Positions 654 through 55,309 of a stretch of 64,000 nucleotides of DNA are shown piece after piece (position 1 is the first letter of the stretch; every line of letters begins with the position of its first letter). The notes beneath the pieces are model-generated. The model was not told where the DNA came from. It ran no database searches and saw only the letters and a program-made list of their open reading frames with translations. The position numbers and the translations under genes were made by a program. Source of the DNA: Boothiomyces macroporosus (Eukaryota; Chytridiomycota; Chytridiomycetes; Rhizophydiales; Terramycetaceae); contig JADGKB010000004.1 in the NCBI GenBank assembly GCA_027604185.1, positions 124,001 through 188,000 of the forward strand, given 5' to 3'.

Positions 654-3176
654 ATGAAGCGAATACAGAGAGGATTCAAATCGTCCTGCATCACTCTAAA
701 ATTAACAAATCAAGACAAGCCTAGAATATCCTTGAAGGAACGAATGGCGGCTGCCAATCAGCAAAAGAACGCACCAGTAAATTCCTCATTCAATGTGCCA
801 AAGTTCTATGTCAAACCAAAGGATTTACCTGCAGTGGATTCAACGAATACATCACTCGGAAATAATGCAAAAAAGCCGGAATTTCAAGCACCGTCAATAG
901 TTGATCAAAATGCTGCATCTGCAAATACACAAAAGATGGATCCTTCAAAATTCAGACTGCCAAATATCAAGACGAATTTCCGGCCTGCTGGAAAATCTGA
1001 AAAGAAACCAGGTCCAGAAGCAGACAGTAGGAGTAAAAGACCTCAGAAACCAAAGCATAAATCTGGAATTAATTCAACTGTAAAACCAATTGATAAAACT
1101 GATAATATAAATGAATCGGAAGATGATCTAGATAGTGGAGCTGTAGCTGAGGATACCCCAATCACAATTGTGGAAGCAGTAGATGACGATTTGGATACAA
1201 AAAAAGTACACAAAAAGGATTTACTGAGAGACAAGGAAAAAAGGCTGAGGGAACTTGAACGAAAGGCTGCAGCCAAGGCAAATGCAAAGACGGTCAAAGT
1301 TAAAGCAAAGAATATCAATATTCCAAACTTTATCACCGTTGCCAACCTTGGTAATTTGCTTGGTGTCAATTATTGTAAATATTTCTAATTTAGTGCACCT
1401 TTCAAAGAAAATGAAAGAGCTAGGATTTGATGACTACCCGCCAGACTATGTTTTGAATTCTGAATTAATTAGTATGATTGCGCTAGAGTACAACTTCAAT
1501 CCTATCATTATGAAGCAAGAAGTAGTTACTGCTGAACCAAGGTTTTAAATTGCTAATATAGACCTGAGCCGGAAGATTGGTCGATATATCCTACACGTCC
1601 GCCTGTCATTACTATTATGGGACACGTAGACCGTAAGTTTCAATTAACATAAGATGGAAAAACGACGCTTTTAGACTCTTTGCGAAAAACATCGGTAGCT
1701 GCTGGAGAAGCTGGAGGTATCACTCAGCACATTGGTGCATTCTCTGTTTTGCTGCCTTCTCAAAAGCGAATTACCTTTTTGGATACTCCTGGCCATGCGG
1801 CATTTAGCCAAATGAGAGCTAGAGGTGCACAGGTTACAGATATTGTTGTTCTCATCGTCGCTGCTGACGATGGAGTCATGCCACAGACTATAGAAGCAAT
1901 TGACCATGCTCAAAAAGCAAACGTGCCAATAATAGTTGCGATCAACAAGTGCGATAAGCCAGGAGTCAATCCAGTACACTGAAACTAAAATTAGAAAAAA
2001 ATCAAAGAAGATTTATTGAGATATAATATCACTGTCGAAGATTATGGCGGGGAAATTCCAGCTGTAGAAATTTCTGGAAAGACAGGAAAGGGGTTGGCAG
2101 AGCTGGAAGAAACTATATTGGCAATTGCAGAAGTGAACGATTACAGAGGAGATCCAACTGGACCGGTTGAAGCGACAGTGGTTGAATCCAAAATGACTAA
2201 AGGTTTTGGAAATGTTGCAACAGTGATTGTTAAAAGAGGAACTTTGGTTCCTGGAGCAATTATAGTTGCCGGGGAGTCCCTCTGCAAAGTCCGAAAAATG
2301 ATTGACGAACATGGCAAAACTGTCAAGAGTATCGGTCCATCAGGTCCGATTGAGGTTTTAGGTTGGAAAGAGCTTCCTTCTGCTGGAGAATTAGTTCTCC
2401 AAGTAGAGTCGGAATTCATTGGAAAGAAGGTTATAGAAAGTCGAAAGAGGCTGGCAGAGTTTAATAGTTCATTAGAAAGCGTTGAAGCAATGAATGAAAA
2501 AGCAATCAATAAATTGGAAGACACTGAAGCTGTTGAAGAGGCTCCAAAGAAAAACGAGTACAGAGTAATCATCAAAGCTGATGTGGATGGTAGCACAGAA
2601 GCAATTGCTAATGTTCTAGCGGGAATCCCAAGTCACGAAGTTTCTTGTAATATCATTAATTCAAGCGTTGGTGCATTATCAGAAGCTGATGTGAACTATG
2701 CTATTGCATCCAAAGCTGATATAATCACATTTAATATTCCAGTCCAAAAGAGTATGCTTACTTTGGCTAATCAAAACAAGATTAATATTCATAGCCACAA
2801 TGTGATATACACCCTCATCGACCAGGTAAAGGCGTCAATGTCAGAGCTGCTTCCGCCAGAAATTGTTACAAATGTTACTGGTGAGGCATCGATCGCTCAA
2901 CTTTTCAGCATTACAGTTAAAGGAAAGCAAGAACCGATTGCAGGATGCAAAGTGTTTAATGGAAAAATTACAAAGAACAGCATACTGCGTGTTGTAAGAG
3001 ATGGTGCAGTTATCCATGAAGGCAAGATAAAGACGTTCAAGCATCACAAAAAAGATATTTTGGAAGCTGCGAAAGGTCTTGAATGCGGTATTGCTGTGGA
3101 AGGCTTTCCAGCTATCCAAGAAGGAGATATACTTCAATCCATAAACATTACTCACAAGAAACGCACCATAGAATAA
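654..3176 (+). CDS. MTIF2: Mitochondrial translation initiation factor IF-2
   Basis: GTPase that brings formyl-Met-tRNA to the mitochondrial ribosome. The spliced protein is 813 aa. It has a basic, low-complexity N-terminal region (~1-220) suited to a mitochondrial leader, an IF2_N-like segment ([21 protein letters not shown]), then the G domain with G1 GHVDHGKTTL, G3 DTPGHAAF and G4 NKCD, followed by the beta-barrel and C-terminal domains ending HKKRTIE. Four introns of 19-21 nt interrupt it; the smallest is 19 nt at 1375-1393, and others lie near 1541, 1632 and 1973. Without splicing the frame breaks inside the G domain. The start at 654 lies 42 bp after the previous stop. The cytosolic eIF5B family is excluded by the bacterial-type domain order. 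Confidence 0.93.
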
Positions 3177-7828: not shown

Positions 7829-8975
7829 ATGACTAGAGCTGGAGCAAAAGAAAAGGTCTGTCTCGTTGGCTCTGGAAATTGGTACGAAATTATCTTAGAA
7901 TAGGGGCTCTGCTATCGCCAAGATTGTAGGAAGAAATGTAACCAAATACCCCGAATTTGACAATGAAGTTCGAATGTGGGTGTTTGAAGAAATAGTGCAG
8001 GGAGAAAGATTAACAGATATAATCAATACAAAGCATGAAAATGTAAAATACCTTCCAAATATTCCTCTTCCTAAAAATGTGGTTGCAGTTCCGGAATTGT
8101 TAAAGGCTTGCGAAGGCGCTACTATGCTTATCTTTGTAGTACCGCATCAAGTACAGTCTTTATCTAACAGATAGTTTGTAAAAGGGGTTTGTGAACAACT
8201 GTATGGCCGACTGGAGCCAGGAGCGAAAGCAATCTCACTAATCAAAGTAACCCAAAGTGTAATAATAGGGTGTAGATGTTGGAAATGAAGGTCTGCAGCT
8301 GATTTCCGACGTGATTGCCGATCATTTGTCTATTGATGTATCTGTTCTAATGGGCGCAAACATAGCACAAGGGGTGGCAATGGACGAGTTTTGCGAATCG
8401 ACAATCGGATATAACATTAAAGAAAATGCAGACCTGTTCCATAAAGCCTTTAATACCCAGTATTTCAGAATCAACTGTGTGCCTGATGTCGGTAATTCAA
8501 ACTTAATTGCAGCTGGAGCCGAATTGTGCGGAGCATTAAAAAATGTAGTGGCCATCGCTGCCGGATTTGTTGACGGTCTCAAATGTGGTGATAATACAAA
8601 GGCAGCAATAATTAGAATCGGATTAATGGAAATGAGAAAGTTTTGCAAATATTTTTATGAAGGCGTAAAGGATGAAACTTTCTTTGAATCATGCGGAGTC
8701 GCTGATCTTATAACTACTTGCTCTGGAGGGAGAAATCGTAAAGTCGCAGAAGCTCGAGTATTGACTGGCAAGTCATTAGAAGTATTGGAAAAAGAGTTGT
8801 TGAATGGACAGAAGCTGCAGGGATCTGGTACTGCAAAGGAAGTGCATTTGATCTTGAGAGAGAAACATCTGATTCACGAGTAAGTTATACTAATGTTAGA
8901 TATCCTCTATTTACCACAGTGTATCGTATCTGCTACGAAGGCTTGCACCCACGAGCAATTTTGGAAGAAATCTAA
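7829..8975 (+). CDS. GPD1: NAD-dependent glycerol-3-phosphate dehydrogenase
   Basis: Reduces dihydroxyacetone phosphate to glycerol 3-phosphate, feeding phospholipid synthesis and redox shuttling. The spliced protein is 352 aa, the usual size of cytosolic GPD1. The N-terminal Rossmann motif is [18 protein letters not shown]. It continues with [34 protein letters not shown], the substrate-domain block [22 protein letters not shown], and [20 protein letters not shown], ending HPRAILEEI. Four introns of 20-24 nt lie near 7887, 8147, 8249 and 8883; the first one splits the Trp codon of the GNWG motif. The ATG at 7829 puts the dinucleotide-binding motif near residue 10, with no targeting leader, so it is probably cytosolic. 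Lipid genes nearby (PCYT2, patatin homologue) are probably coincidental. Confidence 0.95.
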
Positions 8976-11596: not shown

Positions 11597-14500
11597 ATGT
11601 ATGTGGCAGTCGGTACACCTAAAATATTGGCAGAGAGAATATCGACAGAGGAAGGGGAGGCATTTCAACAGCCCATATTCACTGGACCAATCAATCCGTC
11701 CATCACAATGATTAAACGTAATATAGAAAAGTCATTATTCTGCTCAATCACATACAATACGATATCACTGTGGTCAATTAAAGTAGGCTGTCATTAACAT
11801 AGCCGGAAGTCTTGATATCCAAAGTCGTCAGGAATGACGATTCAATTCAATCAGAAGGCGATAATGTTGATATTATATGGAGGCCAGACGGAAATACAGT
11901 AGTCATAATCACCAATAGAGGATATATGCATTACTACGATGTGGTGAATCAACAAGGTTAGGGTTAGTTTAATCTAGGTTTCTAATTAATAATGGTAGCT
12001 CCAGTTTTGGATTTTACATTTTCAAACGTTCATCATCACTCAAGAGGACCAGGAGAAGCTGAAGGGATACCTGGATACTATCTAAGATTCAATATATCAC
12101 TGGAAGTAGAATCTGGGGTTGATTGCGGGATTGGATTGAAGGATGAATTGGTCATTTGCACAAACCAAAATCCAACACTAATGAATTTCACCTGGACCGC
12201 CGAAAAGTCAGTTTCAAAGCCTTTTAAATTGTCGGATTTGGATTTTTATCTTAATCCATCAGAACCAGTACTACTAATTAGATCAAATAAGACGGAAGAC
12301 ATATTTGGGATTTTGACTGAAACCGGAAATGTTTATCTATGCGAATACAATAAGAAATGGACAGGATACTGTATATATTCACCGGCAGAATGTCCCCCTG
12401 CAACCTGTATAGAGTTCAACCCAGCATTCAATATTCTGGCCATCGGAAATTTGGATGGTATGGTTTACCATTATGAATTAAAGAGAGAGCCACTAAGTGC
12501 GACTCTCACTCATACTTCAGCCATAATGAAACCGGATGGGAGAAATACACCAATGAAGATCAGTGCAGTTACATCTCTGTGTTGGAGCTCAGACGGATAT
12601 GCACTGGCAATGAGCTGGATTTACGGTGGGTTTTCGATTTGGAGTATATACGGTTGCCTGTTGACAAGTACAATTTCAGAAGATACGTACGTCCATGCAT
12701 CAGATGGAATTGTACATGAAACAGATGAAGTGTTTTTTACCGGTGTACAGGAGCTGTGGTGGGCTCCAGGGGATTACTTTTTGTTCATTTTGCCTTCTTC
12801 CACTCTAGAAAAAGATATTGTCCTGGATATTTATGTAATGGAGTTTGCAAAATCTTCAATTCTTACTTCGCTTTCTAATGTAAGATTAATTAATGTAGCA
12901 ACACAATAGGAATGTATGTCTGATTGCGTCAGATAGGCTTATTGTCTATGAAGGGATGGATAAGGAAGAGGCAGTTACAGGGTTAGATCCCCTTAATTGG
13001 ACAACAATACATGTAGTTTCCATCTAACCTTAGATCCCACCAATGTATTTGGTAAGCAATTGGCCAATCAAATACGTTACTTCATCCAGAAATAGTCAGT
13101 TTATTGCAGTAGCAGGGAAAAAAGGATTTGCGCATTACAATAGCGCATCCGGAAAATGGAAGCTTTTTGGCAATGAACATCATGAGCAAGGGTTTGAAGT
13201 GTCTGGAATACTTTGGTTCAACAGCTTTATCATCATATCCTGCTTTAATTTGCGGAACGGAAAATACGAAGTAACCCTTGGGCTAAATTAGGTGAGATTG
13301 TACTCTAGAGACTCCAAGTTGGACGAAGACAATATTATTCATACCGAACATTTTGTACACCCAATCTCAGCAATGAATTTGCTGGATGCGCATTTGCTTG
13401 TGTTTACCAACAACAGCTCAATCCAATCATATATTATTCATCAAAATGCAGGTACGTCATCTTTAACTTGAGATCGAGTTCCAACACTCAAATTGAAGCA
13501 AGGATTTACACTCCAAAACTTCATTTCATCTAGCACTACTTTTGTTCAGGGTATTGCAAGAATGAGGATTTTTAACGAAAAAAACGATGGCCTTTTCAAT
13601 AATCCAATTCTTTTACTCAAGAACGGCTCATTGCACATGATCTGGAGAAAGGTATTTGTTCATTAAATGGAGAATGAAAAATGGCAGGCAACTAAAATTG
13701 CTGACCGAATCGAGCATTTTTGGATATCTTCGTCTAAAACTGATGCAAATGATTTCAAAACATCGATTTGGGCATTCAACGGTCAGGGAGCAAAGATTTT
13801 AAGTGATCCGTCGCATTGGATAGAGAGTCCGGTTGATGAAAGGCCCAAGGACGCTGTATTAAGGCTTTCTTTGGACTTTTATCCATTAGGTAATAGTATT
13901 GTTAATCTAGTTGTTTTATTGAAACAAGGTGTCCTAGTTGGCATTCGACAGCAGCTTTCTCTCAATAATTCTTTGGGTATTTCTCAATTTTCTTGCGAAA
14001 TTAAGGTATCTTGTTCTAATTCAGACCCACTTGTTTGTTCATCTGATCATAAAACACTTCCTGTCTACTAATCTGTATAATAGAGCTCTCAATTTCGCAA
14101 AAAACTACCAAGATCTAGAATACTTTAACCACGCACTTGAAATGATGTTGCATAATGCGCTGGACGAAGATTCGGATTTACCAAAGGAATCTCAAGATAG
14201 AATACTTTCAAGTGTTATCGCGTTTGTCAAACAGTTTCCAAGAAGCCTGGAGATTATTGTTAATTGTGCTAGAAAGAGTGAAATGGCACTGTGGAAACAC
14301 TACTTTTCGTTGGTTGGAGATCCAATAGAGCTGTACAAGGTATTCAAAGAAATAATTTAGGTCGCTCTGGAAAGTGGTTCGTATCAAGTAGCTACATCAT
14401 ATCTTATTATTATACAAACGCTTGAACCGCTCGAAGTCAGTAGCAAAGTAAGTGGATATCTAAGTTAGCTTGCGGTCAAATTGTTGGAACATTCTCTTAA

Positions 14501-15245
14501 CGCTGATGATTTTGAAACAGCATCAGAACTATACAGATTCTTGAGATCCATTTTTGGTAATCGGTGTTGATTATAGATGAAGAAATACTAAGTGCAAATG
14601 ATAACGATATTCAGTCGCAACCATTGTAATTAATTATTTAATTGTAGAACAAAAGAGCAATTATCCCATATGCTGCTATTTGAAACTTTGATCCACAAGA
14701 AAATGAGAGATATTCTGCTTGAGGGCAGATATAGAGATTTGCTGCACTTTGGAGCTTTGTTTTCGGTTTCCATCTCACATTGGCTTAAAACTGAACGGTA
14801 AGCGTATTTTTATTATAGTGCAAATACAGAATATTTAGTAATGGATTGGGGGTTCACATTTTCAGAGCTGCATGAACAGTTTAACTGGCCGTATCCAGCG
14901 GTCATCAAATCTCCAGCCTTGACACGAAGAGACTCTAAAAACAGCGTGGATAAGGGCTGGGGAGTTGGAAGACGGCCATCACAATTAGGGATTATAACAA
15001 AAAGAACTTCTACTTTGAATCTCCGAGAATCAGAGTTGCGCAATTTGATGAACACAGCAAAAGATGGAGATTTCCCTGAATTAGCATTACTCGTGTCTAC
15101 GATGCTTCAAGATATAGATAACTGTTTAGCTATTCTTCAGCACCACCCACAATTTAAAAGTAGATGGGAAAATGCCCTGTTATCCATCAAGGAGAGTTCA
15201 TACCCATTTTATGCCCAGGCTCTGAAAGAAATCTTGAGTAAATAA
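11597..15245 (+). CDS. RIC1: RIC1 homologue, exchange factor subunit for Rab6/Ypt6
   Basis: RIC1 with RGP1 activates Rab6 for endosome-to-Golgi retrograde transport. The spliced protein is 1119 aa, close to the animal RIC1. The N-terminal half forms WD40-type propellers starting MYVAVGTPKIL. Diagnostic blocks are YLVSNWPIKYVTSSRNSQFI with GFAHYNSASGKWKLFG, and the C-terminal alpha-solenoid segments NRALNFAKNYQDLEYFNHAL and ARKSEMALWKHYFSLVGDP. Thirteen intron positions are needed; twelve are 19-22 nt, and one is 42 nt (11957-11998) that divides exactly into two abutting 21-nt GT-AG units. Removing them gives exactly 1120 codons including the stop. Start at 11597, 55 bp after VMA21. Confidence 0.92.
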
Positions 15246-15270
15246 ATCGACATTATAGATTATATATTTG

Positions 15271-16674
15271 TTATGCGTTTCTTTCCGTAGGTGGTCTATA
15301 TGGCACTCCAAGCAATTGAAATATTTCTTCTTCAGAAGACCCTGCGATTTTCTCACCCAACAAGACTTCCTTTCCAACTTTTGTAGCTTTGAACAGGCCA
15401 TGTCGGTTTAAATGATATCCTTTCCTTGCAGCCAGCAATCTAATACTCCTATTAAATAAATCGTTGCCCGTGAAATAAATCAAAGCAGCTCCCAGCTCAT
15501 CTATAGGAACCAAGAGAAAGTCTAGATGAGGTAGAGCCTACCTATTCTTCTTTGCGGTCCATTGTCAATAGAACAAATTCCTCGAACTATTTTCGAAGCA
15601 ACTATAATAGTATCGGTCATTATTTTTGCTGCTGTTAGATGGTCGCAAATCTCTGTGAATAATTCGTCAATTAATTCTATAGTTTTTGAGGTAAAAATGA
15701 GGTCTATATCCCCACATGTTTCTGCCCCACGTCTGTAAGAACCCATTATATACATATCCAAGTCTGGAAATCTGACTTTTAAAACTTTTTCAATACGATT
15801 GCCAATTTCTTCTACTTCACTCCTAGGAATCCTCTGTTTCAAATCCTGGATCAGAACAAAGTACTTGATAGTATTTTAGCCCCAATTGTTGGGCTTTGGT
15901 CAAATCCTTACGCTTTCGTACATCATCAAGAGTTCTCAATCCTTCTGTGTACCACTTTCGAGCCAGCTTAGAACCTACTCCATAGATATTGTAAAAAATC
16001 TCTAAAGTTTTTACACTCTCTGGAATTTCTTCATTCTTCTTCATGTAACCTATATCCAAGAATTCCTGAATCTTGTCTGCTATTTTCTCACCTATTCCTC
16101 TAATTAGAAGAGCTTCTTTCTTGTCCTTGATCTTTGTTGGGTATTTTTTAAGCGCAGATATGGCTGTTCGGTAAGATTTAATCCTCCATCTATCTCCTTC
16201 CACCGTGTATCTATCTAGCAGTTTCTGTAATTGATCAATTATTTCTCTATTCGGTAGTTTCTCTTCATCTTTCGTTTTACTCGAATCCATACATACGTAC
16301 TTTGTTTGATCAAACTTTCTTTTTTTATCTGGATACACTACTTCAATATCAGAGTCAGACAAGTCAGTAATGTCAGTGTCCGAATCATAGTTCCTTTTTA
16401 GTGTTGTTGCGGGTGGTTCATCTTCAATAATCACCACTTCTACTTCCGGTTTATTCAATGGCTGCTGTTTTCCTTCAGTTATTGATTTGGATATCCACTC
16501 TGCATTCACTGTGGGTTTCGCAAATGGATGATTGCTCAATACAATGTCCGCTTCTTTCAAAGTTCCTACTCTACCCCCATAAACGGTGAATCTCTCCAGC
16601 AGCAAATCCAGTAGCTTCTTATTGAAGCTCTTGCGATCCGGGTATAACACTAACGGTTTGAACAAGCTTTGCAT
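15271..16674 (-). CDS. POL4: X-family DNA polymerase (lambda/Pol4-like) with degenerate BRCT region
   Basis: Gap-filling polymerase for non-homologous end joining and base-excision repair. The spliced protein is 454 aa with two introns (19 and 20 nt near 15857 and 15533). Residues 1-75 look like a diverged BRCT domain (VYGGRVGTLKEADIVLSNH, then NAEWISKSI). A charged linker follows, then the 8-kDa and fingers helix-hairpin-helix motifs (LIRGIGEKIADKIQEF and IYGVGSKLARKWY), and the palm with GSYRRGAETCGDIDLIF, whose two Asp bind metal. The third catalytic Asp is in RIDFLLVP, split by the second intron. The end GVPYRPPTERNA is the usual family terminus. It is shorter than human lambda because the Ser/Pro-rich region is reduced. 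It converges with RIC1 (25 bp apart). Confidence 0.92.
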
Positions 16675-16690
16675 AAATTAAAAAAAGTTT

Positions 16691-16930
16691 TTATTCCTTA
16701 AATCCCAAGTCCTTCATATCCTCCTTCGCCATCAAATTCTTTTCCATTCTACATTCGAAATAATGCTTCGAAACTAATCTACAGGCTGTTGTATTGTTTT
16801 TATTCTTCTTTAGACATTCCAGATACTCTTTTACAAATTCATTACAATCGCCTTTATAGTCTAGCGGAAATGCACCTCTTTCCGGCGGTACTGCAGTCGA
16901 AAACTGCTGCCAGCTTGATCCCATTGACAT
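16691..16930 (-). CDS. COX19: COX19, twin CX9C cytochrome c oxidase assembly protein
   Basis: Intermembrane-space protein needed for copper delivery to cytochrome c oxidase. It has 79 aa and no intron. PPERGAFPLDYKGDCNEF is the family signature. The two CX9C pairs are CNEFVKEYLEC and CRLVSKHYFEC, which form the coiled-coil-helix-coiled-coil-helix fold oxidised by Mia40. The ATG at 16930 gives the N-terminus MSMGSSW. Its stop lies 16 bp upstream of the DNA polymerase start, and its ATG is 52 bp from the divergent LTO1 ATG. Implies a functional respiratory chain. Confidence 0.93.
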   Translation of the reverse strand: MSMGSSWQQFSTAVPPERGAFPLDYKGDCNEFVKEYLECLKKNKNNTTACRLVSKHYFECRMEKNLMAKEDMKDLGFKE

Positions 16931-16982
16931 TTTAAACGACAAAAAATGAAAATTTCATGCTGCAAATTTTTACTTTTTGAAA

Positions 16983-17366
16983 ATGGAGGATTTGATACAC
17001 TTGGAAGAAATGTTCCATGAATACGGACGTTTGGATGGTATCGAACAGGGGCAAAAGAGCGGATTGCTGGAAGGGAAAGTTCTGGGTCTAGAAAAAGGAT
17101 TTGATTTCGCAAAGGAAATGGGGTACTATATTGCATTTAGCGAGCATTGGATATCAATTGTAGAGCAAAACCGAGTAGCTTATCCGGAGCGAACTTTAAA
17201 GCAGCTGAACAACCTCCTTGACTTATGCTTGACTTTCCACACTGAAAATAATTTGAATATTGATCCTTTAAAGCTGATGAATAATGTGAGGGGTAAATTT
17301 AAAGCAGCATGCTCTCTACTAAAAGTGCATTACTCCTATTCTGATACCCAAGCACTCAATTTTTAA
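16983..17366 (+). CDS. LTO1: LTO1 (deca-GX3 motif) adaptor for cytosolic Fe-S protein assembly
   Basis: LTO1 with YAE1 recruits the Fe-S targeting complex to ABCE1/Rli1 for ribosome biogenesis and recycling. It has 127 aa and no intron. The deca-GX3 region lies at residues 14-50: YGRLDGIEQGQKSGLLEGKV then LGLEKGFDFAKEMGYY, with Gly at four-residue spacing. The C-terminal half is helical with no recognised motif, and the usual C-terminal Trp is not seen (the end is TQALNF). It shares a 52-bp divergent promoter with COX19 and ends 24 bp before the convergent RBR ligase gene. Confidence 0.85.
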   Translation: MEDLIHLEEMFHEYGRLDGIEQGQKSGLLEGKVLGLEKGFDFAKEMGYYIAFSEHWISIVEQNRVAYPERTLKQLNNLLDLCLTFHTENNLNIDPLKLMNNVRGKFKAACSLLKVHYSYSDTQALNF

Positions 17367-17389
17367 TTTAATAGATTTGTTATATTATT

Positions 17390-18938
17390 TCAGAAAGAGT
17401 ATTCCCATCGTTTTTCCAAGTGCCCAGCAGCGGTATCTGAAAGAAGAATCTGTCTTCTTCTGTTTACATATTCAGTTTTATCTAATACCGTTTGTCTAAG
17501 TTCTGCCGCATTTTCTGGGGTGATTTGTGTTTCCAACAATCCAGATAATGCTTCAACGGCCATCTCCAAGTCCCTTTGGTTATCCTCAAACAGTGCGGTG
17601 GCATTTGAATTTCTAGCAAGGTAGTAGGCAAGTGCATATGTCCACATTAATGTTGCTCTTGATTTCAATAATACATCGACAGCACTTTTCAAAAATTGAA
17701 CTTGTATCCATGAAAAATCAGAGGATTTCTGCATAACCTCCATCTTCTTTTCCGTTGCTTCATATAGCTGCTTGTCTAACTTGGCAGATTGATCATGATT
17801 AGCGTATCGATTATAATACTAAGTTAAACAGTAATTACGTGTAGATATCGTTCTAATGCTTGACGTGACTTGGTTTGGGCATCTCGTGCATCTACACTTT
17901 CTTTTTCTTCGTATCTACTGCAGTTGTACCACGATGTACCGTGATCAGCCCAAGGTCCTAAGCAAATCCAGCAAAACTATTGTTAATCAAGACTTACTTC
18001 ATGTTTACATTTTCGACAAGTCATATGGTTACATCCTCCGTTCTTTTCAATCATGGAAAAGCACTTGACACATTCTTTTGTGTTTGCCGCTATCCAATTT
18101 GATGTTTCAGAATCATCAGCGCATTTCTTGAGCCACCTTTTAACAACATCGCAAATAGCTGGCTGATGATCTTTTAGTCCGCATCCAAAGCAGAATCGAT
18201 GGCCAGATGAACATTCCACCGTTGGGACTATGGTATCCAGTTGAGCCTTCGTGATCAGGCACTTTACCGCATTCTCACAGTTAGGATATGGACACCAATG
18301 TAGTGATTTATGGTCATCTACAAACGCTCTTAACAGCAATATCTTGTACCTAATGTTAATGTATGTTACTTTTGATATATCTCTGGTTTCACCAACAATT
18401 GAATTGCTTTTTCGTCCACTATTAAATTACAATTTTCCGCGCAAGTGATATACCTGCTTTCCCCCTCTTTAATTTTATCAGTAAGATAATGTTCGTAACA
18501 ATCAGCGCAAAACCGGTGATCGCAAGAAAGGGCAAAAGTCAGCAAATTATCTTGATCGTTACAACAAATATCACAGCTGAAACCAGGAACGGTAATTAAC
18601 TTTGGCTCCTTCACATCCATAATCACCCCAGCTTCTTTTTTCACCGCATCTTCGTTTTCCATGTAACTTTCAATCAGCCGCTCCTTGTTCCATTTGAAAT
18701 GCCGCAATAGTGTGGATGCATTTTCTTTCGTGCATCCCAAAATATTGCAAACATGCGATATTTCTTCATTCTGGATTTTTTCAATATCCGAAGGGGAGTA
18801 GCATTTATATTCAACATCGTAGCTTCGCTTAATGTCCTTTTCTGGTATCACAGGCTCGAAAACAAAATCTTGCTCCTCGTCCTCCTGGGAATAGTCGAAA
18901 TCGTCTTCATCCATAGTGTCACTTTCGAAATCGCTCAT
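17390..18938 (-). CDS. ARIH1: Ariadne-type RBR E3 ubiquitin ligase
   Basis: RING-between-RING ligase that passes ubiquitin through a catalytic Cys and works with neddylated cullins. The spliced protein is 495 aa. It has an acidic N-terminus, a UBA-like region (~60-105), RING1 ([26 protein letters not shown]), IBR ([24 protein letters not shown]) and RING2 ([19 protein letters not shown]) followed by [13 protein letters not shown]. The Cys of GGCNHMTC corresponds to the catalytic residue. The helical Ariadne domain ends with [11 protein letters not shown]. Three introns of 20-21 nt, near 18365, 17995 and 17820. Length and every domain match ARIH1 and yeast Hel1. Confidence 0.94.
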
Positions 18939-19526
18939 TTTTGATTTGCAAGATTTTCAGCCACTTTTTCTTTATAACTTTCTGATCCTTTCTGACTCTA
19001 TTTAGTCATCCAAAGGGTACAATTTCTGGTAAATCAAGCACTACCAGATCGCCATTCTTGTATCGCTTTATTAATCAGAAACTCTGGTGCACTCCCTCGA
19101 AATTACGTCCGCAATTCCTCCACATCATTGTTGGTGATTGCATTTGTCGATTTAATTGTTTGCTGATTATAATTGTTTGCATGATCTGGGAGATCTATGA
19201 AAGATGAATACTCTGATCCTAAACATGCTGCGTTTGGACTTTTCCACATTGGTTACAGCCTCATCTGTCGAGCGACTGAACAACTGTAGAAATTCCGTAA
19301 CGAGAAAACTCCCAAGATCATAATTACAACCGTCTTTCGTAGTGATTTAATCATTCCTCCGCTCTGAAATCGCGTTGAAGAGACTGGTCTTTCGGAAAAA
19401 GTTCGCTCCCTACCGAAAATATCAGGAAACACCATATGCTTTTTCACAGACAACTCAAGGAAAGCGCATGGGAAAACGGTAGAGCTTTCTTTTAAAAGGA
19501 GCAATTGGTAAACCATTTCAATCAAA
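18939..19526. other. 588-bp intergenic region upstream of the carboxypeptidase
   Basis: No gene is supported here. One long minus-strand open frame runs from it into the carboxypeptidase gene, but it is antisense shadow of the coding region. The stretch serves divergent transcription of the Ariadne ligase (minus) and the secreted peptidase (plus). A TATA-like run (TTTTAAAAGG) sits about 30 bp before the carboxypeptidase ATG. No tRNA or repeat was found. Confidence 0.45.
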
Positions 19527-20796
19527 ATGAAGCTTAACTTTGCCACATTATTCGCTGTGCTCCAATTCGTGTCTGCTGTCCCAACCAAAGGACAATATGA
19601 AGGGGACAAAGTAATCCAATTCCAAATAGAAAACAAGAACCAACAGCAGCTTGTACAATCTGTCGTTAGAGAACATAGACTAGATGCCTGGACTGATATC
19701 ATTGTTGGTCCAACTGACATTCGCATCAAAGCTAAAGACATTCCAAAGGTCGCTGAATTGCTCAAAGATATCAAGTCCAGCGTAAAGATTGCGAACTTGC
19801 AAGTTGAAATTGATGCCGAAAGAGCTCACACTGCTGAGCACTTGAAGTCTTTTGCCAACACCAAAGCCTTGACTGCAGCTCAAGTTTTCGCCGACTACCA
19901 AGATGCCTCCACCTATGTAAAGTTCTTGCAAGGCCTTCCAGGCACCACCCCGATCAACCTCGGCAAGACCTATCTGGGCAATGACATCCTGGGTGTCAAG
20001 TTTGGCACTGGAGCAAAGCAAATCGTCGTCCATGGTGGCATCCACGCCAGAGAGTGGATAGCTCCTTCCACTACCACCTATATTGCGAATGCGCTCATCA
20101 CTGGAACCGACAGCGCCTCCGTCTCGCTGAAGAACACCTTCACTTTCCACTTTATCCCAGTGCTGAACGTTGACGGCTACCAATACACCAGGGACCCAAA
20201 CGGAGACAGAATGAACCGCAAAAACAGGGAACCTAACAGCGGAAGCGACTGTGTTGGTACTGATCCAAACAGAAACTTTGACTATGCGTGGTCTCAAGCT
20301 GGTGCTTCTAGCGACCCGTGTGCAGACGACTACTACGGCCCATCGGCTGCAAGCTCCAAGGAAGTTCAAGCAATCACTGCCTACCTCAAATCGTTAAACA
20401 ATGTTGTCTCCTACATTGACTTCCACTCGTACTCTCAACTGTTCATGTATCCATGGGGCTATTCTTGTGATGCTAGCAACCCAGATGCCAACGATCAAGG
20501 AAACGCAGCACAGGCTGCAGTTAATGCACTACAAAATGTAAACGGATTGTCATTTACTCCAGGAGATATTTGCAACACCATCTGTAACCCATTAATTAAC
20601 AATAGATCAAGCTTCTGGAAGCAGTACTGACTATGCTTATGGAACCCTTGGAATCAAATATTCATATGGTGTAGAATTGCGTCCAAACGAATTCAACAGC
20701 AACGGATTCGTTCTCCCAGCATCTAACATTACTCCTGCCGGAAAGGAAACTTTGGCAGCAGTTATTGCAGCATGGAAATATGCAGCTGCACACTAG
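19527..20796 (+). CDS. Secreted metallocarboxypeptidase, M14A family
   Basis: Zinc exopeptidase removing C-terminal residues, made as a secreted zymogen. The spliced protein is 415 aa. Residues 1-17 (MKLNFATLFAVLQFVSA) form a clear signal peptide; residues ~25-110 are the activation propeptide. The catalytic domain shows HGGIHAREWIAPS (zinc His and Glu), NVDGYQYTRDPNGDRMNRKN, DPNRNFDYAW, YIDFHSYSQLFMYPWG (third zinc ligand) and the general base in YGVELRP. One 22-nt intron lies near 20587. Codons ending in C are far commoner than in its neighbours, as expected of a highly expressed gene. AATAAA follows the stop. Exact A or B type specificity cannot be fixed by eye. Confidence 0.93.
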
Positions 20797-36041: not shown

Positions 36042-38861
36042 TTACAATTGTTCTTTTCCTGATGCTAATATTGAGCTTTTCCTGTTGTCTCGTAGTAACT
36101 TTTGAGCAAATTCAATAACATCAGCAAATTGATAGCCTTCAAAAATGGCGATTCTCCTTTGCAGGGCACCAAAGTCTTGATTTTCCTTGAATGCCATGTG
36201 ATAGTAGTAATCATTCTTTGCTGATAATTGGTCGAATGGAGAACGTAGCCGCTTTAAACACGACTCTCGAATTGATTCTAGATTAGAATTACGATTACCA
36301 AATCTATGTCTATTAACTTCAGTATCTATATTTAGAAGGAAGTCATTGTGAAAGTCTTCAATCCTATCATACAAGTCTTGAGCTGAATAAGTGTTAGACT
36401 GAATATATGCGGTGAGCAAAAACTGCTTGTCGATTTGTATAGCACCAGAGCTAACAATATAACCAGTTTGCTGCTGTGTTCGCAGTGACGAATAAAAAGG
36501 CTCTTTGATTAGCTTTGAAAATATTTCCCAGTCACATCGAACTTTATCACTTTTCTTTCCAACATACTGGGACCAAACCACAGCATTACCATTCACTTGG
36601 AGATTAATTGGCTTGATAACGGTTTCGTTGTATGGGAGTAGTTTTGCATCTGTAACCGCTAAAGGGTCGCATTGATTTCCTTCAAGTCGAGATAATACTA
36701 AGTTCAGCATTTCCAAAGATTCAGATTGAGTGCAGTTACCACCAGCAAATGCCTCAATAATTCTTTTTTCATAAATTCGTTCTGTGAAATCTTGTAAATC
36801 ATTTAAACTAATATTTTCAAGTGCAAGAGCCAATTCTTTCCCAGTGACATATTGATCTATCACTAGCTTGTAAAAACTTTCATTAGCTTGTTGTAACGGC
36901 GAATTTTTGACGTAATTGTTGTATCTTCGGGATAGACTAGCCTTAAACAATCCAAATTTCGATTCTGAAAGTTCGGGATTCTTCAACACCAACAAAACTT
37001 CTTCAAGTAATAGTTTTAAATTTTGACTATATCCATCGACTGAAATGCCAATTCCTGTGTTATCATCTATCCAAATTGAGTAATGCAAGCCTGCGAGCGA
37101 TGCGTTATATGAGAGTTCATTCAACTTTTCCGCCACAAATCTGAATGAAAAGTATATTACCTTGTATACAGAGAGGCTAGGCATACAGTCCTTGGATCAT
37201 TTGGTCTGATTAGTGGGGTCTTTATGGTGAATACAAATTCTGACTTTGGAATCCTAAACTCTGAATCTGAGAGGTAATACATTGTTGCACCACTGTTTTC
37301 ATAAATTTTAGTAGGTATCGCCTGAATTGCAGGATGAACTAGAACATCAAGTTTTGTCGGCACTAGAGTATTTGGTTTTGGGTATTTAACCTCATTTGGT
37401 GTTGGTTGGGCGAGTGTATTATTATATGAAAATACTGTATATTTCGCACCCATCCATTTTTCCTTTCTATCAAGTGTGTGAGGTGAATTGTTGGCCATAA
37501 TTTCTACAAACGCCTTGTCAACAGTTAGCGAATAAAGTAAATTCTTGATTGCGACATCATCAAATCTGTCAATGTTAAATGAATACATAGGAAAAGTTTC
37601 CAAAGATTCTCTTCGCATGGCTTTTGCGTAACTTGTTGCGATGGTTGGCGACCGCTGTTGATATTCGTATGCAATTTTAGACATGAGGTTTCGCTCGGTA
37701 TATATGTACTAAGTTAAATTCCAAATACCTTTGGGAAATCACAGGTTTTGAGAGATTCAATCGCACTCATGATTTTCTCTACTACAGATTTCCACCTCAC
37801 TAATCCTTTCTCGGTTAGCATTACAGATATTTCATATAAAACATTCTTTTGTCCCACAATTTGCTGTCCTGCAGTAATTCCTTCCACTAAATCCAGTTTT
37901 TTCAAAGAGGAAAGTAACGAGTGTTCCCCCTCGTGACCCAAGACAAATGATAACAATGAAGCCGGTTTTGAAGTTATATCGCAATATTCAAATGGTATTT
38001 CCCAGACTATTGACAACTCTTTAAGATTCTTTAAAGGCTCGATCCAGACAACTTTTCCTTTCAGATCTGGAAAAAGTTCCATTTTTTGCAGCCTATTTGT
38101 ACTGCTGCGTTTGATTATTGGTGAAAATTGTTCATTTACTATACCTTGTAATTCTGCAATTGGCTCTTTGCCCACCACCACCAAATTCATCAAATTTGAA
38201 TTATAGTGGGTGCTGAACCAATTTTTAAGGTACTGCTGGTCAATTAGTTTCATAGTCTCCAAGTTTCCCGTATTAAACCCAGCTAGATTAGAATAAATAT
38301 ACCGAAAGGATGGTCAGGATTTGACAATTCTTTCCTAACGTGCAACGCTCTCCACCCATCGGATAAAATATTCTTTTTATATTCTTCATCCACAGCTGAA
38401 ATTAATCCGATTTTACCAATCATTTCTCTCTCCACACAGTTTTCGTTGAATAGTGGTTCATAAAAGAAACGCGAGAATCTGTCAAGTGCACCCACCAACT
38501 TGTTTGGATTGACATTTTGAAAGTAATAGAGAGAGTGATCATTTGCGGTATATCCATTGAGGGAGCCATTTGCATCAGAGATGTACCGTTTATATTCGCT
38601 CTCTGAAGGGTATTTTTTTGTCCCCAAAAATAGCATGTGCTCCAAAAAGTGAGCAGTTCCTTCATATCTTCCATCATGCCAACTTCCAGCATCAACGCTC
38701 AGTGCGGCACTTGTAATTGGGGTGTTTTTATCACTAATCAGCACCGCATTCAATCCATTTGATAATCTAATTTTCCCCATTTCCATATCTTGCAATTGAT
38801 GTGATTTCAGCTTATATTTGAAGTGATTCTTGATATTCAATATTGTATTTTTTCCCTTCAT
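36042..38861 (-). CDS. STE23: Insulysin/Ste23-type M16 zinc metalloprotease
   Basis: Clam-shell protease that degrades small peptides and processes a-factor in yeast. The spliced protein is 919 aa with three 20-nt introns (near 38270, 37705 and 37150). The inverted zinc motif is HFLEH in the block GTAHFLEHMLFLGTKKYPSE, and NGSLNGYTANDHSLYYF follows. The distal zinc-ligand region is CVEREM. Three further M16 domains follow, including the QQTGYIVSSG segment near residue 730. It lacks a signal peptide; the 25-residue lead before the first domain is basic. Length is close to Ste23 and a little shorter than human IDE. Catalytic residues look intact. Confidence 0.94.
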
Positions 38862-40975: not shown

Positions 40976-42332
40976 TTACTTTTTCTTCTTTTTGACTTTG
41001 TTATCCTCTCCCTACATTAGCACAGCTTACCTTTAGTATGGCCTGCTTTTGTTTTTGGATTCTTTTTTTACTTCCAAAGTCCTTGTCAATAAGCTGCATA
41101 GAAGCCTCCCTCTTTGCTAGGTTCACTTGGTTCAAAAGCTCCAACACTGGGTTTTCTGGTACTGTATACTCTACCATCTTTTTTTCTAAATATTAATCCC
41201 CAGTTACTAGTCTTTTCTTCGATGTTGAGCAAAATCTGAATGTCACGTTCAGTAACGATAGAAATAGATAAACCACCTCTACCTGCTCTCGCGGTACGAC
41301 CAATTCTATGGATATAATCAGTCGCGTCTGCTGGTAATTCATAATTTATCACGACTTGCACAGTTGGAATATCAAGCCCACTGACATTAAAAACAACTCA
41401 CCGTGAACCCACGTCTGTCGAAATCAAAATAGGAACAATTCCACTTTTGAACTTTGCCAGTGATCCAAGTCGCTCATTTTGAGACATTTGAGAGTGGAGC
41501 GCAGTTGAGCGTAACCCCATTTCCTTTAGCAAAATTCTCAAGATTTCACAACCTCTTGGCTTGCTTGCGAATATAATGACAGTTTTTCCTGCAAAGTCGT
41601 TCTGCAGAATGTAAGATAAATAAGCTTCTCTGACTCCAGAGGGGATAAATAAGTATTTCTGATCCAGGTTGTCCACCGTATCATATCTGTGTTAAATAAA
41701 ATCTACCTAGATGCACAGCTGTACACGAATGGCTTCTTTGCTGAGGAAAATTGAATTTCTTCGATTTCAGGTGTCATTGTCGCAGAAAACAACAAAGTCT
41801 GTCTCTTCTTTGGTAGCGTATCGAATATAACTTCCAAGTCCTCAGCAAAATTATCTGTCAGCATTCTATCCGCTTCATCCAGGACCAAAAACTTTATCCT
41901 CTTAAAATGGATCGCATTGGCGCTATTCTTTATATGATCAACTAGTCTTCCTGGTGTTGCCACTACAATATGTGGTTTTTGGGCCAGCTCAATTGCTTGA
42001 GACATCATGTCCAATCCACCAACAATTACACTCTGTTTTAGGCCAATTGAAGTCCCCAGCACTCTAAACTGTTCCGCAATTTGAAAGGCCAATTCCCTTG
42101 TAGGAGTTAATACAAGCGCAAACACTCCAAATGGGTCTTCCCCCAGCTTTTGTAATATTGGAAGGGCAAAAGCTGCTGTTTTACCAGACCCCGTTTTGGC
42201 AGACCCAATTACATCCTGTCCATCCAAAATTGGTGGTATACATGCGCTTTGAATTTCTGATGGTGCTTTGATGGATAATTGATCCAGGGCTGTTATTAGC
42301 CAAGGTTTAATGCTTATGTCCTGAAAATTCAT
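40976..42332 (-). CDS. DDX49: DEAD-box RNA helicase DDX49/Dbp8
   Basis: Nucleolar ATP-dependent helicase for 18S rRNA maturation. The spliced protein is 424 aa with four introns (20, 21, 22 and 19 nt). The Q-motif [13 protein letters not shown] precedes motif [12 protein letters not shown], Ia PTRELAFQ, Ib TPGRL, II DEAD, III SAT and [15 protein letters not shown]. The signature [17 protein letters not shown] with [15 protein letters not shown] is diagnostic for DDX49. The C-terminus ends [20 protein letters not shown] followed by a Lys run, reached only by splicing the 22-nt intron near 41190; reading through gives an unrelated tail. It converges with the hydrolase gene, with 7 bp between stops. 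Confidence 0.93.
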
Positions 42333-53078: not shown

Positions 53079-54753
53079 TTATTGATGCTGTATAAAAGAA
53101 CCTGATGGTATTGCTAATACTTCGTTCAACTGTTTGTTTTGTGAGTCTGACAGTTTTGCAGATGTGCCTTGAATAGCAGCCATCATGAAATCCAGGAATC
53201 TAGTTCCGTATAATTGGGGGTCTACAGCAGAGATGGTATTCTAAAATTAGCACTGAAATACCTTCTTGTGACCGATGGATTTCCACATGGTCTCCATTCT
53301 CTTTGCTGGGCTATAATATGTAAAGATATCTATAATGCCAATGTAATAGATTTGCTTTGATGGACAATTCTTTTCATCAGTGCTTCTAAAACCACCCTCA
53401 TCGGCGTAAAAGAAACAATATCGTCGCCTGGAATTAAAAATGCTTACTCTGTAGGCACTTGGTCCGGCAATTTTGAGGTAGAAGGTCCCAACTGTACAAT
53501 ATCTGACAAGACACTAGAATCTCTCATAATTTGGGCTTTGGACAAACGATTAGGAGCAGTCGCACGCCGGCTTAAAGTGTCAGCATTTGGTTCAAAAACG
53601 GACAGTGTTTGGTCACGAATATGATCCTGGTTACCTCTGACCAAGTCGTGAATACCAACTAGTAGAGAGTAATCCATGATGCCTTGCAACATTAAAAACT
53701 AGAGTTAAATATGAAATACTTTAACGTCGATTTGCATTTGCTTTTCAAACAATGCCCTTTTTTCAGGTCCCAATTGGAGCCTTCTATTTCGGTTCATCCA
53801 ATTCTTGTCCTTCATTACAGCACGTGGATTCTTTGCCTCTTCTTCGCTAATTTCACGGCCAAGAGTAGAACCTTTCAAATCATAAACTTCATGAATATCC
53901 TTGTTTGGAGGGAAAACATTTCCCATCACAACAAAGTGAATCTTTTTGTTTCCAGGAAGCTTTACTCTGTGTAACCCAAATATTCTGGACAATAGCGTGT
54001 GCGGATGGTTTTTTACATGACTATAATAATGATTAAGTATTTTCAGCATAAATTTATGTTCAGAGTGGTGTATGGTTTTGATGATAAAACGATAGTCTTG
54101 GGAATAGTAAAAGAAGGACCCAGATTTACCAGAGCTAACAAGTTCTGAAAGCACGTACTTTCCAGTTAGCGATAGTAAATATTCATTTGCGTCGACGTGG
54201 AAACATTCTCTAATCATTCTAAAAACCCAAGGGCAGTAATCTTTGAATTTAAAGTCGTATTTAGAGGAGGGAGTCATTTCATTACCGGTTCTACGTTAGT
54301 AAATGCTTACACATCGAACGCTAACTTGTGAGCGGCCGTGTAATCGGCTTCCACTAAATCCCTAGCAGGTTTAGCGTTACAACGCGACACTGAGATTCTG
54401 ATTCCAGTAAGCATATCATACATGAGCATATAGTTGGCATGCCCCTCTTTTACAGGTGTTCCAACCAATACTTCTCTATCGGATTTCTGTCTAGGTAGTC
54501 TTGCGTTTTTTGTAGGAGAATTTCCAGGTGAATATGTCTCTGCTCTTGCCACTGGACTTTCTTGGTATGAAGCAGCTGAATATGGCTCGTTTCTCTTGTG
54601 GGATTTTTTCCGTGACATTGAGTCGTTTAAAGGTAATATTTCAGGGTGTTTGCGAATGTCTTCGATTTCAATAGCTCCAGGGACAATGTGGTCTTTTGGT
54701 AGCTTGTCGACTACTTGGTCGGCTACGTTTTTGTTGTCTGTTGAAACTGCCAT
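53079..54753 (-). CDS. MSS4: Phosphatidylinositol 4-phosphate 5-kinase
   Basis: Makes PI(4,5)P2 at the plasma membrane for endocytosis and actin control. The spliced protein is 530 aa with four introns of 20-21 nt (near 54303, 53695, 53435 and 53260). After an N-terminal Ser/Lys-rich region, the kinase domain shows DYCPWVFRMIRECFHVDANEYLLSL, GKSGSFFYYSQDYRFIIKT (ATP-binding Gly and Lys), DLKGSTLGRE, the catalytic MDYSLLVGIH, and IYYIGIIDIFTYY with the IID metal Asp. The activation loop (KRMETMWKSIGHKK) keeps the basic specificity pattern of type I kinases. The C-terminus YGTRFLDFMMAAI is conserved. Confidence 0.94.
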
Positions 54754-54849: not shown

Positions 54850-55309
54850 ATGATTAAAAAATTATTTAAAAGTAACCTGGACTCTGCAAAGTTGTTTATA
54901 TGTAGCGGATCACTAGTGTTGTTGTTTTTGGGGAATATCGCAGAAATTTCTTACATCGAGGGGCCGTCAATGATCCCCACAGCGAATTCAGGAGATTTGC
55001 TGGTGTGGGATAAAATCTCTGTATTATGGAAGCCTTACGAGATTGGCGAGCTTGTAGTATACCGCTCGCCGATAGACAAAAATCGAGTGGTGTTGAAAAG
55101 AATATTGGGCTTACCTGGAGATACTATATACAAAGATCCAACGAAATCAAACGAACGAATTATTGTAAATATCATTAATACAGGTTCCAGAAGGACACGT
55201 TTGGGTTCAGGGCGACAATTATGACATGTCCAGAGACAGCAGAGAGTATGGAACATTTTCGATGGGACTGCTTTTAGGCAGAGTACGGTTCCCAGTAATT
55301 ACAGACTAA
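54850..55309 (+). CDS. IMP1: Mitochondrial inner membrane protease subunit 1
   Basis: Type I signal peptidase of the mitochondrial intermembrane space, cleaving leaders of Cox2 and other proteins. The spliced protein is 146 aa. A transmembrane helix (LFICSGSLVLLFLGNIAEI) precedes the catalytic-Ser box EGPSMIPTANSGD; the catalytic Lys is in RVVLKRILGLPGD; VPEGHVWVQGDNYDMSRDSR is box E. A 19-nt intron (55165-55183) splits the region after RIIV. Length and motifs fit IMP1/IMMP1L; IMP2 is less likely because of the short ends. AATAAA lies about 45 bp downstream of the stop, in the next gene's leader. Confidence 0.92.

What the first reader, a model, noticed from the sequence alone, without database searches (positions are those of the whole stretch)
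1375..1393. Genome-wide ultrashort introns: about 100 introns of 19-24 nt
Every intron I could resolve with confidence except one is 19-24 nt, with mode 20-21 nt. Examples: 19 nt here in IF-2, 55165-55183 in IMP1, 45332-45350 in a hydrolase. Consensus is GTA... then a TAAT/TAAC or CTAAT motif about 3-8 nt before the AG. Each complete gene model becomes an exact multiple of three and restores family motifs. This is near the lower physical limit for spliceosomal introns, matched only by a few lineages such as the Bigelowiella nucleomorph and some ciliates, and it is striking in a gene set of opisthokont type with diverse metabolism.
Basis: partly seen in the sequence, partly recalled or inferred. 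Interest (0 to 1): 0.85.

Follow-up and report, generated by a model that had tools for sequence, protein, structure and literature searches.

The report
Genome-wide 20-nucleotide introns in a chytrid
The genes of this chytrid fungus are interrupted by very many introns of only about 20 letters, close to the smallest that the splicing machine is known to remove, although every splicing part that was looked for is present.

Summary
The window is part of a held 15.2 Mb genome. Its PIP5K protein equals, over all 530 residues, a deposited protein of Boothiomyces sp. JEL0838 (Chytridiomycota, Rhizophydiales). My gene finder places 100 introns in the window, all 19-24 nt, and 311 in 264 kb, 310 of them 18-24 nt. 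The peak appears with a flat length prior in 200 kb of held-out sequence: 66 of 136 GT..AG introns are 17-25 nt, against 7-18 for 11 other boundary pairs. Without gene models, GTAA-N7,8-TAAT-N2,3-AG occurs 79 times against 3 in reversed sequence. In five genes, 23 of 30 junctions are crossed without a gap by more homologues than not. The branch A lies at position 14-15, 5-6 nt before the intron end, in most introns. U1, U2, U6 and seven of seven splicing-protein families searched are present, including Slu7 and Prp18, which a study of Stentor's 15-nt introns did not find. This is a new fungal member of a known kind. No RNA evidence was available.

The parts
654..3176 (+). mitochondrial IF-2 gene, 5 exons, 813 aa when spliced
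1375..1393 (+). IF-2 intron 1, 19 nt
   Evidence: gapless across junction in 110 of 120 homologues, gapped in 1
1542..1561 (+). IF-2 intron 2, 20 nt
   Evidence: gapless in 87 of 120, gapped in 30
1633..1653 (+). IF-2 intron 3, 21 nt, inside the GTPase P-loop GHVD/HGKT
   Evidence: gapless in 117 of 120, mean flank identity 0.94
1974..1994 (+). IF-2 intron 4, 21 nt
   Evidence: gapless in 120 of 120
11597..15245 (+). RIC1 gene, 15 predicted introns of 19-22 nt, 1112 aa
   Evidence: 47% identity over 100% to Globomyces RIC1 of 1117 aa
11783..11802 (+). RIC1 intron 1, 20 nt
   Evidence: gapless in 16 of 17 homologues
11957..11977 (+). RIC1 intron 2, 21 nt, directly abutting intron 3
   Evidence: gapless in 6 of 17, gapped in 10; score falls up to 2498 if kept
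11978..11998 (+). RIC1 intron 3, 21 nt; with intron 2 perhaps one fused 42-nt intron
12880..12898 (+). RIC1 intron 4, 19 nt
   Evidence: gapless in 12 of 17
13013..13033 (+). RIC1 intron 5, 21 nt
   Evidence: gapless in 9 of 17, gapped in 8
13271..13291 (+). RIC1 intron 6, 21 nt
   Evidence: gapless in 13 of 17
13452..13472 (+). RIC1 intron 7, 21 nt (weak homology support)
   Evidence: gapless in 4 of 17, gapped in 13
13652..13672 (+). RIC1 intron 8, 21 nt
   Evidence: gapless in 8 of 17, gapped in 9
13890..13910 (+). RIC1 intron 9, 21 nt, in frame without stop
   Evidence: gapless in 16 of 17
14006..14024 (+). RIC1 intron 10, 19 nt
   Evidence: gapless in 9 of 17, gapped in 8
14340..14360 (+). 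RIC1 intron 11, 21 nt
   Evidence: gapless in 16 of 17
14448..14468 (+). RIC1 intron 12, 21 nt
   Evidence: gapless in 16 of 17
14557..14576 (+). RIC1 intron 13, 20 nt (weak homology support)
   Evidence: gapless in 3 of 17, gapped in 8
14626..14647 (+). RIC1 intron 14, 22 nt (weak homology support)
   Evidence: gapless in 1 of 17, gapped in 7
14798..14818 (+). RIC1 intron 15, 21 nt (weak homology support)
   Evidence: gapless in 3 of 17, gapped in 3
36042..38861 (-). insulin-degrading-enzyme-like gene, 4 predicted introns plus 1 missed
38283..38302 (-). IDE intron, 20 nt
   Evidence: gapless in the best solved-structure alignment, read by eye
37709..37728 (-). IDE intron, 20 nt
   Evidence: same
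37141..37160 (-). IDE intron, 20 nt
   Evidence: same
36278..36298 (-). IDE intron, 21 nt
   Evidence: same
38396..38416 (-). 21-nt in-frame stop-free intron GTAAAATCGGATTAATTTCAG missed by the gene finder
   Evidence: exact 7-residue insertion against insulin-degrading enzyme 3cww
40976..42332 (-). DEAD-box helicase gene, 4 introns (41687-41706, 41381-41401, 41186-41207, 41012-41030)
   Evidence: 3 of the 4 junctions lie inside the best solved-structure alignment and are gapless, read by eye
53079..54753 (-). phosphatidylinositol-4-phosphate 5-kinase gene, 4 introns
   Evidence: spliced protein 100% identical over 100% to a Boothiomyces sp. JEL0838 record
54291..54310 (-). PIP5K intron 1, 20 nt
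   Evidence: gapless in 118 of 119 homologues
53699..53719 (-). PIP5K intron 2, 21 nt
   Evidence: gapless in 119 of 119
53428..53447 (-). PIP5K intron 3, 20 nt
   Evidence: gapless in 81 of 119, gapped in 9, not covered in 29
53241..53261 (-). PIP5K intron 4, 21 nt
   Evidence: gapless in 113 of 119, gapped in 3
   Evidence: spliced protein matches PF00561
55165..55183 (+).

Best explanation
These are ordinary U2-type spliceosomal introns shrunk to about the smallest length the machine can use. Each has a 5' splice site (GTA, most often GTAA), 7-8 nt, a branch site of the type YTNAY with its A usually at position 14-15, 2-3 nt, and an acceptor that is nearly always TAG, CAG or AAG: 19-22 nt in most cases. 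There is no room for a polypyrimidine tract. Shown here: sequence, geometry, homology across junctions, presence of the snRNAs and proteins listed. Inferred: that U1 then U6 pair with bases about +1 to +6 and U2 with bases about 11-16, so the two pairing windows almost abut and set the lower limit; that the lariat loop is 14-15 nt with a 5-6 nt tail; that the state arose by genome-wide deletion within Rhizophydiales while the spliceosome stayed complete; and that the fixed spacing, rather than strong splice-site sequence, gives specificity.
For: Flat-prior peak with 11 dinucleotide controls; self-trained decoys; gene-model-free spacing scan 79 vs 3; 310 of 311 introns 18-24 nt in 264 kb; branch A at position 14-15 in 255 of 310 and 5-6 nt from the end in 266 of 310; more homologues gapless than gapped at 16 of 23 junctions of IF-2, PIP5K and RIC1, and at 4 of 4 IDE and 3 of 3 covered DEAD-box junctions by eye; keeping any one of the 23 introns lowers the alignment score to each of three homologues per gene, by 74-2637 in 22 and by 17 in the in-frame one; removing ultrashort introns lifts U2AF65 from 230.7 bits, below the family cut-off of 310.3, to 342.7 and joins two Slu7 pieces of 154.6 and 94.7 bits into one full-length match of 293.9; deposited PIP5K identical over 530 aa; U6 ACAGAGA, U2 GUAGUA in the copy read, U1 ACUUACCUG; Slu7, Prp18, SF1, U2AF65, Yju2/Saf4, Isy1, Cwc25.
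Against: No RNA was examined. My genome-wide pattern search showed no excess (1037 against 1006 control); it was mis-specified, asking for 9-12 nt between GTAA and TAAT where the real spacing is 7-8, and it fits only 9 of 311 predicted introns. At 7 of 15 RIC1 junctions (2, 3, 7, 8, 13, 14, 15) gapless homologues do not outnumber gapped ones. Decoy training still yields 28-72 false introns per 264 kb, so some of the 311 are wrong. The kept-intron test stops at the first stop codon, so it shows that a correction is needed there, not the exact boundaries. U1 scored 68.8 bits against a gathering score of 69.5. U4, U5, U2AF35, Prp8 and most other splicing proteins were not searched for. Branch sites were placed with weights I set by hand over a limited range, although the spacing scan agrees.
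Confidence: 0.95

Rival explanations
1. Artefact: assembly indels or an over-flexible gene model invent short gaps that restore reading frames.
For: Any GT..AG finder can bridge frameshifts; decoy boundary pairs ended at 28-72 introns of 17-26 nt after self-training.
Against: GT-AG gives 310 and a far higher total score. The motif geometry exists without any gene model, 79 against 3. Homologues cross 23 of 30 tested junctions with more gapless than gapped alignments, and splicing lifts U2AF65 over its family cut-off.
Confidence: 0.01
2. Short introns are only the detectable class; a considerable number of longer or UTR introns exists beside them.
Against: Counts for 44-150 nt under the flat prior (57) are below those of the 11 control pairs (72-86); in the spacing scan, branch distances of 11-150 nt give fewer hits than the reversed control for all three motifs.
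Confidence: 0.06
3. The segments are removed otherwise: as DNA (internal eliminated sequences), by ribosome bypassing, or by a non-spliceosomal RNA mechanism.
For: Their uniform small size resembles ciliate IESs and translational bypass elements (recalled).
Against: GT...branch...AG structure, strand-specific, with intact U1, U2 and U6 pairing sites and branch-site and 3' splice-site factors.
Confidence: 0.01

Closest known systems
Ultrasmall introns of chlorarachniophyte nucleomorphs (Bigelowiella, Lotharella, Amorphochlora)
   Same: GT-AG, 18-23 nt, commonest length 18, 19 or 20 by species, 1.6-3.2 introns per gene; rare 40-41 nt introns read as fusions of two ultrasmall ones (PMC4494063, passages), like the 21+21 nt RIC1 pair here
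   Different: Those are relict nuclei with 793-1,028 introns, about 300 protein genes and no U4 gene found; here a 15.2 Mb fungal genome with an extrapolated 17,900 introns (bootstrap 14,200-20,600)
Heterotrich ciliate introns (Stentor coeruleus)
   Same: Fixed geometry, GUA start, canonical U1 and U2 pairing sites, 5-nt tail after the branch A
   Different: 15-16 nt with the branch A at 10-11; 18% of genes have introns (99 of 128 models here); Slu7 and Prp18 not found and the Cwc25 glycine plug missing (PMC9505925, abstract, section 4 parts 1-2, section 10, passages); here Slu7, Prp18 and a Cwc25 MGGG are present
Mikrocytid introns (Mikrocytos mackini)
   Same: Very narrow size range, conserved sequence
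   Different: 16-17 nt, 224 introns, only 17-19 spliceosomal proteins found (PMC10245619, section 7 and passages)
Paramecium introns
   Same: Only ultrashort introns, and many of them
   Different: About 25 nt; 3n introns rich in stops and under strong selection (PMC5014332, passages); no clear sign of that here
Short branch-to-acceptor introns of Yarrowia and other yeasts, Giardia, Trichomonas
   Same: Branch site locked a few nt before the AG, no polypyrimidine tract
   Different: Yarrowia introns as a whole are long, and these genomes are intron-poor with a strong branch consensus (PMC2483917, passages)

Membership tests
U2-type (major) spliceosomal introns | GT..AG boundaries with a branch-site A upstream of the AG | tested here: met
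U2-type (major) spliceosomal introns | U1, U2 and U6 snRNA genes with canonical pairing sites | tested here: met
   U1 lies 0.7 bits below the gathering score; one of two U2 copies was read
U2-type (major) spliceosomal introns | U4 and U5 snRNA genes | not tested
U2-type (major) spliceosomal introns | Excision from RNA as a lariat | not testable with these tools
   no RNA data
Ultrashort-intron genomes (nucleomorph, heterotrich, mikrocytid type) | Nearly all introns within a few nt of one length under about 25 nt | tested here: met
   310 of 311 at 18-24 nt; 297 of 305 with lengths to 500 allowed
Ultrashort-intron genomes (nucleomorph, heterotrich, mikrocytid type) | Reduced spliceosome (reported for mikrocytids; for Stentor the step-2 factors Slu7 and Prp18) | tested here: not met
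   7 of 7 protein families searched were found: Slu7, Prp18, SF1, U2AF65, Yju2/Saf4, Isy1, Cwc25. A frequent companion, not a defining feature; most other factors were not searched
Paramecium-type retention control | 3n introns depleted or enriched in in-frame stops | tested here: inconclusive
   77 of 83 21-nt introns carry a stop, but phase use does not differ from non-3n introns (p 0.23; 0.62 with hidden candidates) and stop-free 3n introns escape the gene finder

The most novel reading that the evidence does not exclude
A fungus with an unreduced spliceosome, including the second-step factors Slu7 and Prp18 and the Cwc25 plug, runs genome-wide on 19-22 nt introns. The lower size limit would then be set by the abutting U6 and U2 pairing windows and not by loss of proteins, and a whole genome's introns would have contracted to that limit within one order of chytrids.
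Probability: 0.5. Interest if true: 0.75.

Novelty: new member of a known kind. Interest (0 to 1): 0.66.

Why it matters
Uniformly ultrashort introns have been discussed as an outcome of extreme reduction (nucleomorphs, mikrocytids), with free-living heterotrich ciliates against that trend (PMC10245619, section 7). [quoted passage not shown] A fungus with an estimated 18,000 introns of about 20 nt gives a system closer to the yeasts in which to test what the smallest intron is, whether Slu7 and Prp18 matter when the branch lies 5-6 nt from the end, and what U2AF65 binds without a polypyrimidine tract. In practice, gene finders that require longer introns will break these genes.

Tried and rejected
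Considered and dropped. (1) That the TAA in the branch motif doubles as a stop guarding against retention, which would favour phase 0 among 21-nt introns: phase use of 3n and other introns does not differ (p 0.23). (2) A U1 changed to match GTAATT: U1 keeps ACUUACCUG, so the missing +5 G (55 of 310 have it) is not compensated there. (3) Loss of Slu7 and Prp18 as reported for Stentor: both are present. (4) A diverged Isy1 N-terminus as in Stentor: homology to solved Isy1 starts only at residue 37, but the first exons of my model, with a 1-nt exon between two introns, are doubtful, so undecided. (5) 18S rRNA for identification: the machine did not answer four times; a protein search identified the genus instead. 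(6) Rfam and tRNA scans of the window: nothing. (7) A hidden excess of stop-free 3n introns inside predicted exons: 11 candidates at score 0 or more against 65 for four decoy donors together (about 16 each); 9 against 22 at score 1, 4 against 7 at score 2, so at most a few.

Literature. Ten full-text searches of the held library; no listed paper described ultrashort introns in Boothiomyces or another chytrid, judged by titles and abstract beginnings and by passages in PMC10608142, PMC8476143, PMC9926174, PMC11649378, PMC13391722 and PMC3569864, so a report inside an unread paper is possible. Intron lengths of close relatives (Globomyces, Kappamyces, Batrachochytrium) could not be measured: the tool says the genome has no relatives in its set.

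Full report
WHERE IT IS. The window is bases 124001-188000 of contig 4 of a held genome of 15,203,306 bases in 216 contigs. The spliced product of the gene at 53079-54753 (four introns removed) is 100% identical over all 530 residues to a deposited phosphatidylinositol-4-phosphate 5-kinase of Boothiomyces sp. JEL0838; next named hits are Globomyces pollinis-pini at 79% and Batrachochytrium dendrobatidis at 73%. Boothiomyces is in Terramycetaceae, Rhizophydiales, Chytridiomycota. The genus is safe; the strain rests on one protein, and the record's contig is given as 190,917 bases while contig 4 here has 320,488, so this may be another assembly. The identity also means that the depositors' gene model removes the same four ultrashort introns.

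IS IT REAL. I wrote a codon-usage Viterbi gene finder with GT..AG introns. With a flat length prior of 12-150 nt it already placed 24 of 47 window introns at 19-23 nt. Run unchanged on 200 kb from ten other contigs, it placed 66 of 136 introns at 17-25 nt; eleven other boundary pairs, same procedure, gave 7-18 in that band, and GT-AG had fewer than any of them at 44-150 nt, 57 against 72-86. After self-training on window plus those 200 kb (264 kb), gene models scoring over 15 held 311 introns, 310 of them 18-24 nt: 1, 64, 126, 83, 29, 4 and 3 in order of length, and one of 105. Self-training on the control pairs ended at 28-72 introns of 17-26 nt and total scores of 7955-8297 against 10138. 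Allowing lengths to 500 nt with 20% of the prior on a flat tail left 297 of 305 at 18-24 nt; the other 8 are 105-443 nt. The window itself has 100 introns, 19-24 nt.

WITHOUT GENE MODELS. In the 264 kb, GTAA-N(7,8)-TAAT-N(2,3)-AG occurs 79 times on both strands and 3 times in the reversed sequence; with two looser motif pairs 184 against 29 and 228 against 43. Other spacings: for the strict motif with an AG 1-5 nt after it, branch distances of 9-10 nt give 17 against 12 and 11-150 nt fewer than control; at 7-8 nt an AG 6-15 nt after it gives 63 against 38, which I take for a second AG behind a real intron. For the looser motifs every spacing outside 7-8 nt is below control, except close to equality at 7-8 nt with a far AG (159/168 and 256/240). 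The reversed control thus runs higher than the true background. My genome-wide search used a wrong spacing (9-12) and gave 1037 against 1006; in the sample that same pattern gives 15 against 15, so it says only that wider spacings are at background.

HOMOLOGY. In IF-2 the third intron splits the GTPase P-loop, and 117 of 120 homologues cross it without a gap at mean identity 0.94; the other three IF-2 junctions are gapless in 110, 87 and 120 of 120. The four PIP5K junctions are gapless in 118, 119, 81 and 113 of 119. The fifteen RIC1 junctions are gapless in 16, 6, 6, 12, 9, 13, 4, 8, 16, 9, 16, 16, 3, 1 and 3 of 17 homologues, many of them distant (24-31% identity); at seven (2, 3, 7, 8, 13, 14, 15) gapless ones do not outnumber gapped ones. 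Keeping any one of these 23 introns lowers the alignment to each of three relatives per gene, by 74-2637 points in 22 cases and by 17 in the one that is in frame and free of stops; as the translation ends at the first stop, this test does not fix exact boundaries. Read by eye, four of four junctions of the insulin-degrading-enzyme gene and three of three covered junctions (of four) of a DEAD-box gene are gapless against solved structures. The deposited JEL0866 IF-2, 94% identical over 70% of the query, crosses junctions 2-4 without a gap.

A FURTHER CHECK FROM THE GENOME. Unspliced, U2AF65 reaches 230.7 bits with four stops inside, below its family cut-off of 310.3; with four introns of 19-20 nt removed it reaches 342.7. 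Slu7 matches in two pieces (154.6 and 94.7 bits) and, with its introns of 21, 20 and 23 nt removed, over the full profile at 293.9.

WHAT THE GENE FINDER MISSES. Introns that are a multiple of three and hold no stop can be read through. The IDE model shows a 7-residue insertion against insulin-degrading enzyme (3cww) that is exactly a 21-nt GTAAAATCGGATTAATTTCAG (38396-38416). The Prp18 model shows a 7-residue insertion against solved Prp18 (1dvk) matching GTATTCCTGTTTTAACTGTAG (sequence). A scan of predicted exons found 11 such candidates with motif score 0 or more, against 65 for four decoy donors together, about 16 each; 4 against 7 at score 2, so their number is small but unknown.

ANATOMY. 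By hand-set motif weights the branch A is at position 14 or 15 in 255 of 310 introns and 5 or 6 nt from the last base in 266 of 310; acceptors are TAG 220, CAG 60, AAG 28, GAG 2. The donor carries information in GTA and weakly in +4 and +6; +5 G is present in 55 of 310, near intron background, although U1 begins AUACUUACCUG. Intron cores are 72% A+T. Genes average 2.43 introns; 99 of 128 models have at least one. Extrapolation gives 17,900 introns in the genome (bootstrap over 11 stretches 14,200-20,600), not corrected for false or missed ones.

MACHINERY. Found: U6 with ACAGAGA; two U2 copies, the one read with GUAGUA; U1 just under its gathering score; Slu7; Prp18; SF1 with its helix-hairpin, KH and zinc-knuckle domains; U2AF65 with three RRM stretches; Yju2/Saf4; Cwc25; Isy1. 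The Cwc25 model holds MGGGDLNLKKSW at residue 44, behind what is probably a wrong start. The U2AF65, SF1, Slu7, Prp18 and Isy1 models themselves carry such introns. The contrast is with Stentor, whose study found no Slu7 or Prp18 and no glycine plug in Cwc25, and warns that BLAST may miss distant ones (PMC9505925), and with Mikrocytos, with 17-19 spliceosomal proteins (PMC10245619, section 7). U4, U5, U2AF35, Prp8 and others were not searched.

HOW IT MOST LIKELY WORKS. Inference from anatomy: U1, later U6, covers roughly bases 1-6; U2 covers roughly 11-16 with the A bulged; 4 or so bases link them; the acceptor lies in the next 5 bases, too near for a polypyrimidine tract and near enough that, from yeast biochemistry as I recall it, Slu7 and Prp18 should matter little. 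Their presence is therefore the most interesting loose end. How U2AF65 contacts such a substrate is unknown.

DEPOSITED ANNOTATION. The RIC1 search listed no Boothiomyces protein among its 17 hits, and the 120 listed IF-2 hits (of 7,998) had JEL0866 but not JEL0838. Since only proteins of 0.55-1.75 times the query length are considered and lists are capped, this suggests, without proving, that some deposited genes are broken up.

VERDICT. It is a new member, in fungi, of the small set of genomes with uniformly ultrashort introns, with every splicing factor present that was searched for. RNA data would settle it.

Noticed in passing
window 11957-11998: Two 21-nt introns of RIC1 stand back to back with no exon between, like the 40-41 nt fused introns reported for nucleomorphs (PMC4494063, passages); the first contains GTTAGGGTTAG, a telomere-like repeat.
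   Followed up: partly
G000 C2 288328/330924 and 305031/347627; C3 202919/224537; C20 74242/119309; L045 and L046 (C49, C100): The same matches recur at fixed offsets of 42,596, 21,618 and 45,067 bases, and two 3,111-base loci on different contigs are identical: segmental duplications or uncollapsed haplotypes in the assembly.
   Followed up: no
Boothiomyces sp. JEL0838 deposit, RIC1 and IF-2: Full-length RIC1 and IF-2 of this strain were not among the listed database hits, though PIP5K was identical; ultrashort introns may have broken some deposited gene models.
   Followed up: partly
310 introns in 264 kb: Most 5' splice sites lack the +5 G (55 of 310 have it) and GTAATT is the commonest hexamer (43 of 310), although U1 keeps the sequence complementary to GTAAGT.
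   Followed up: partly
window 22670-24880: A protein of about 700 residues made largely of EEKVEETV-type repeats, read only from the gene model.
   Followed up: no
L044 1434-1560: Isy1 N-terminus: two predicted introns separated by a 1-nt exon, and no homology to solved Isy1 before residue 37; either a model error or a diverged N-terminus as reported for Stentor.
   Followed up: partly
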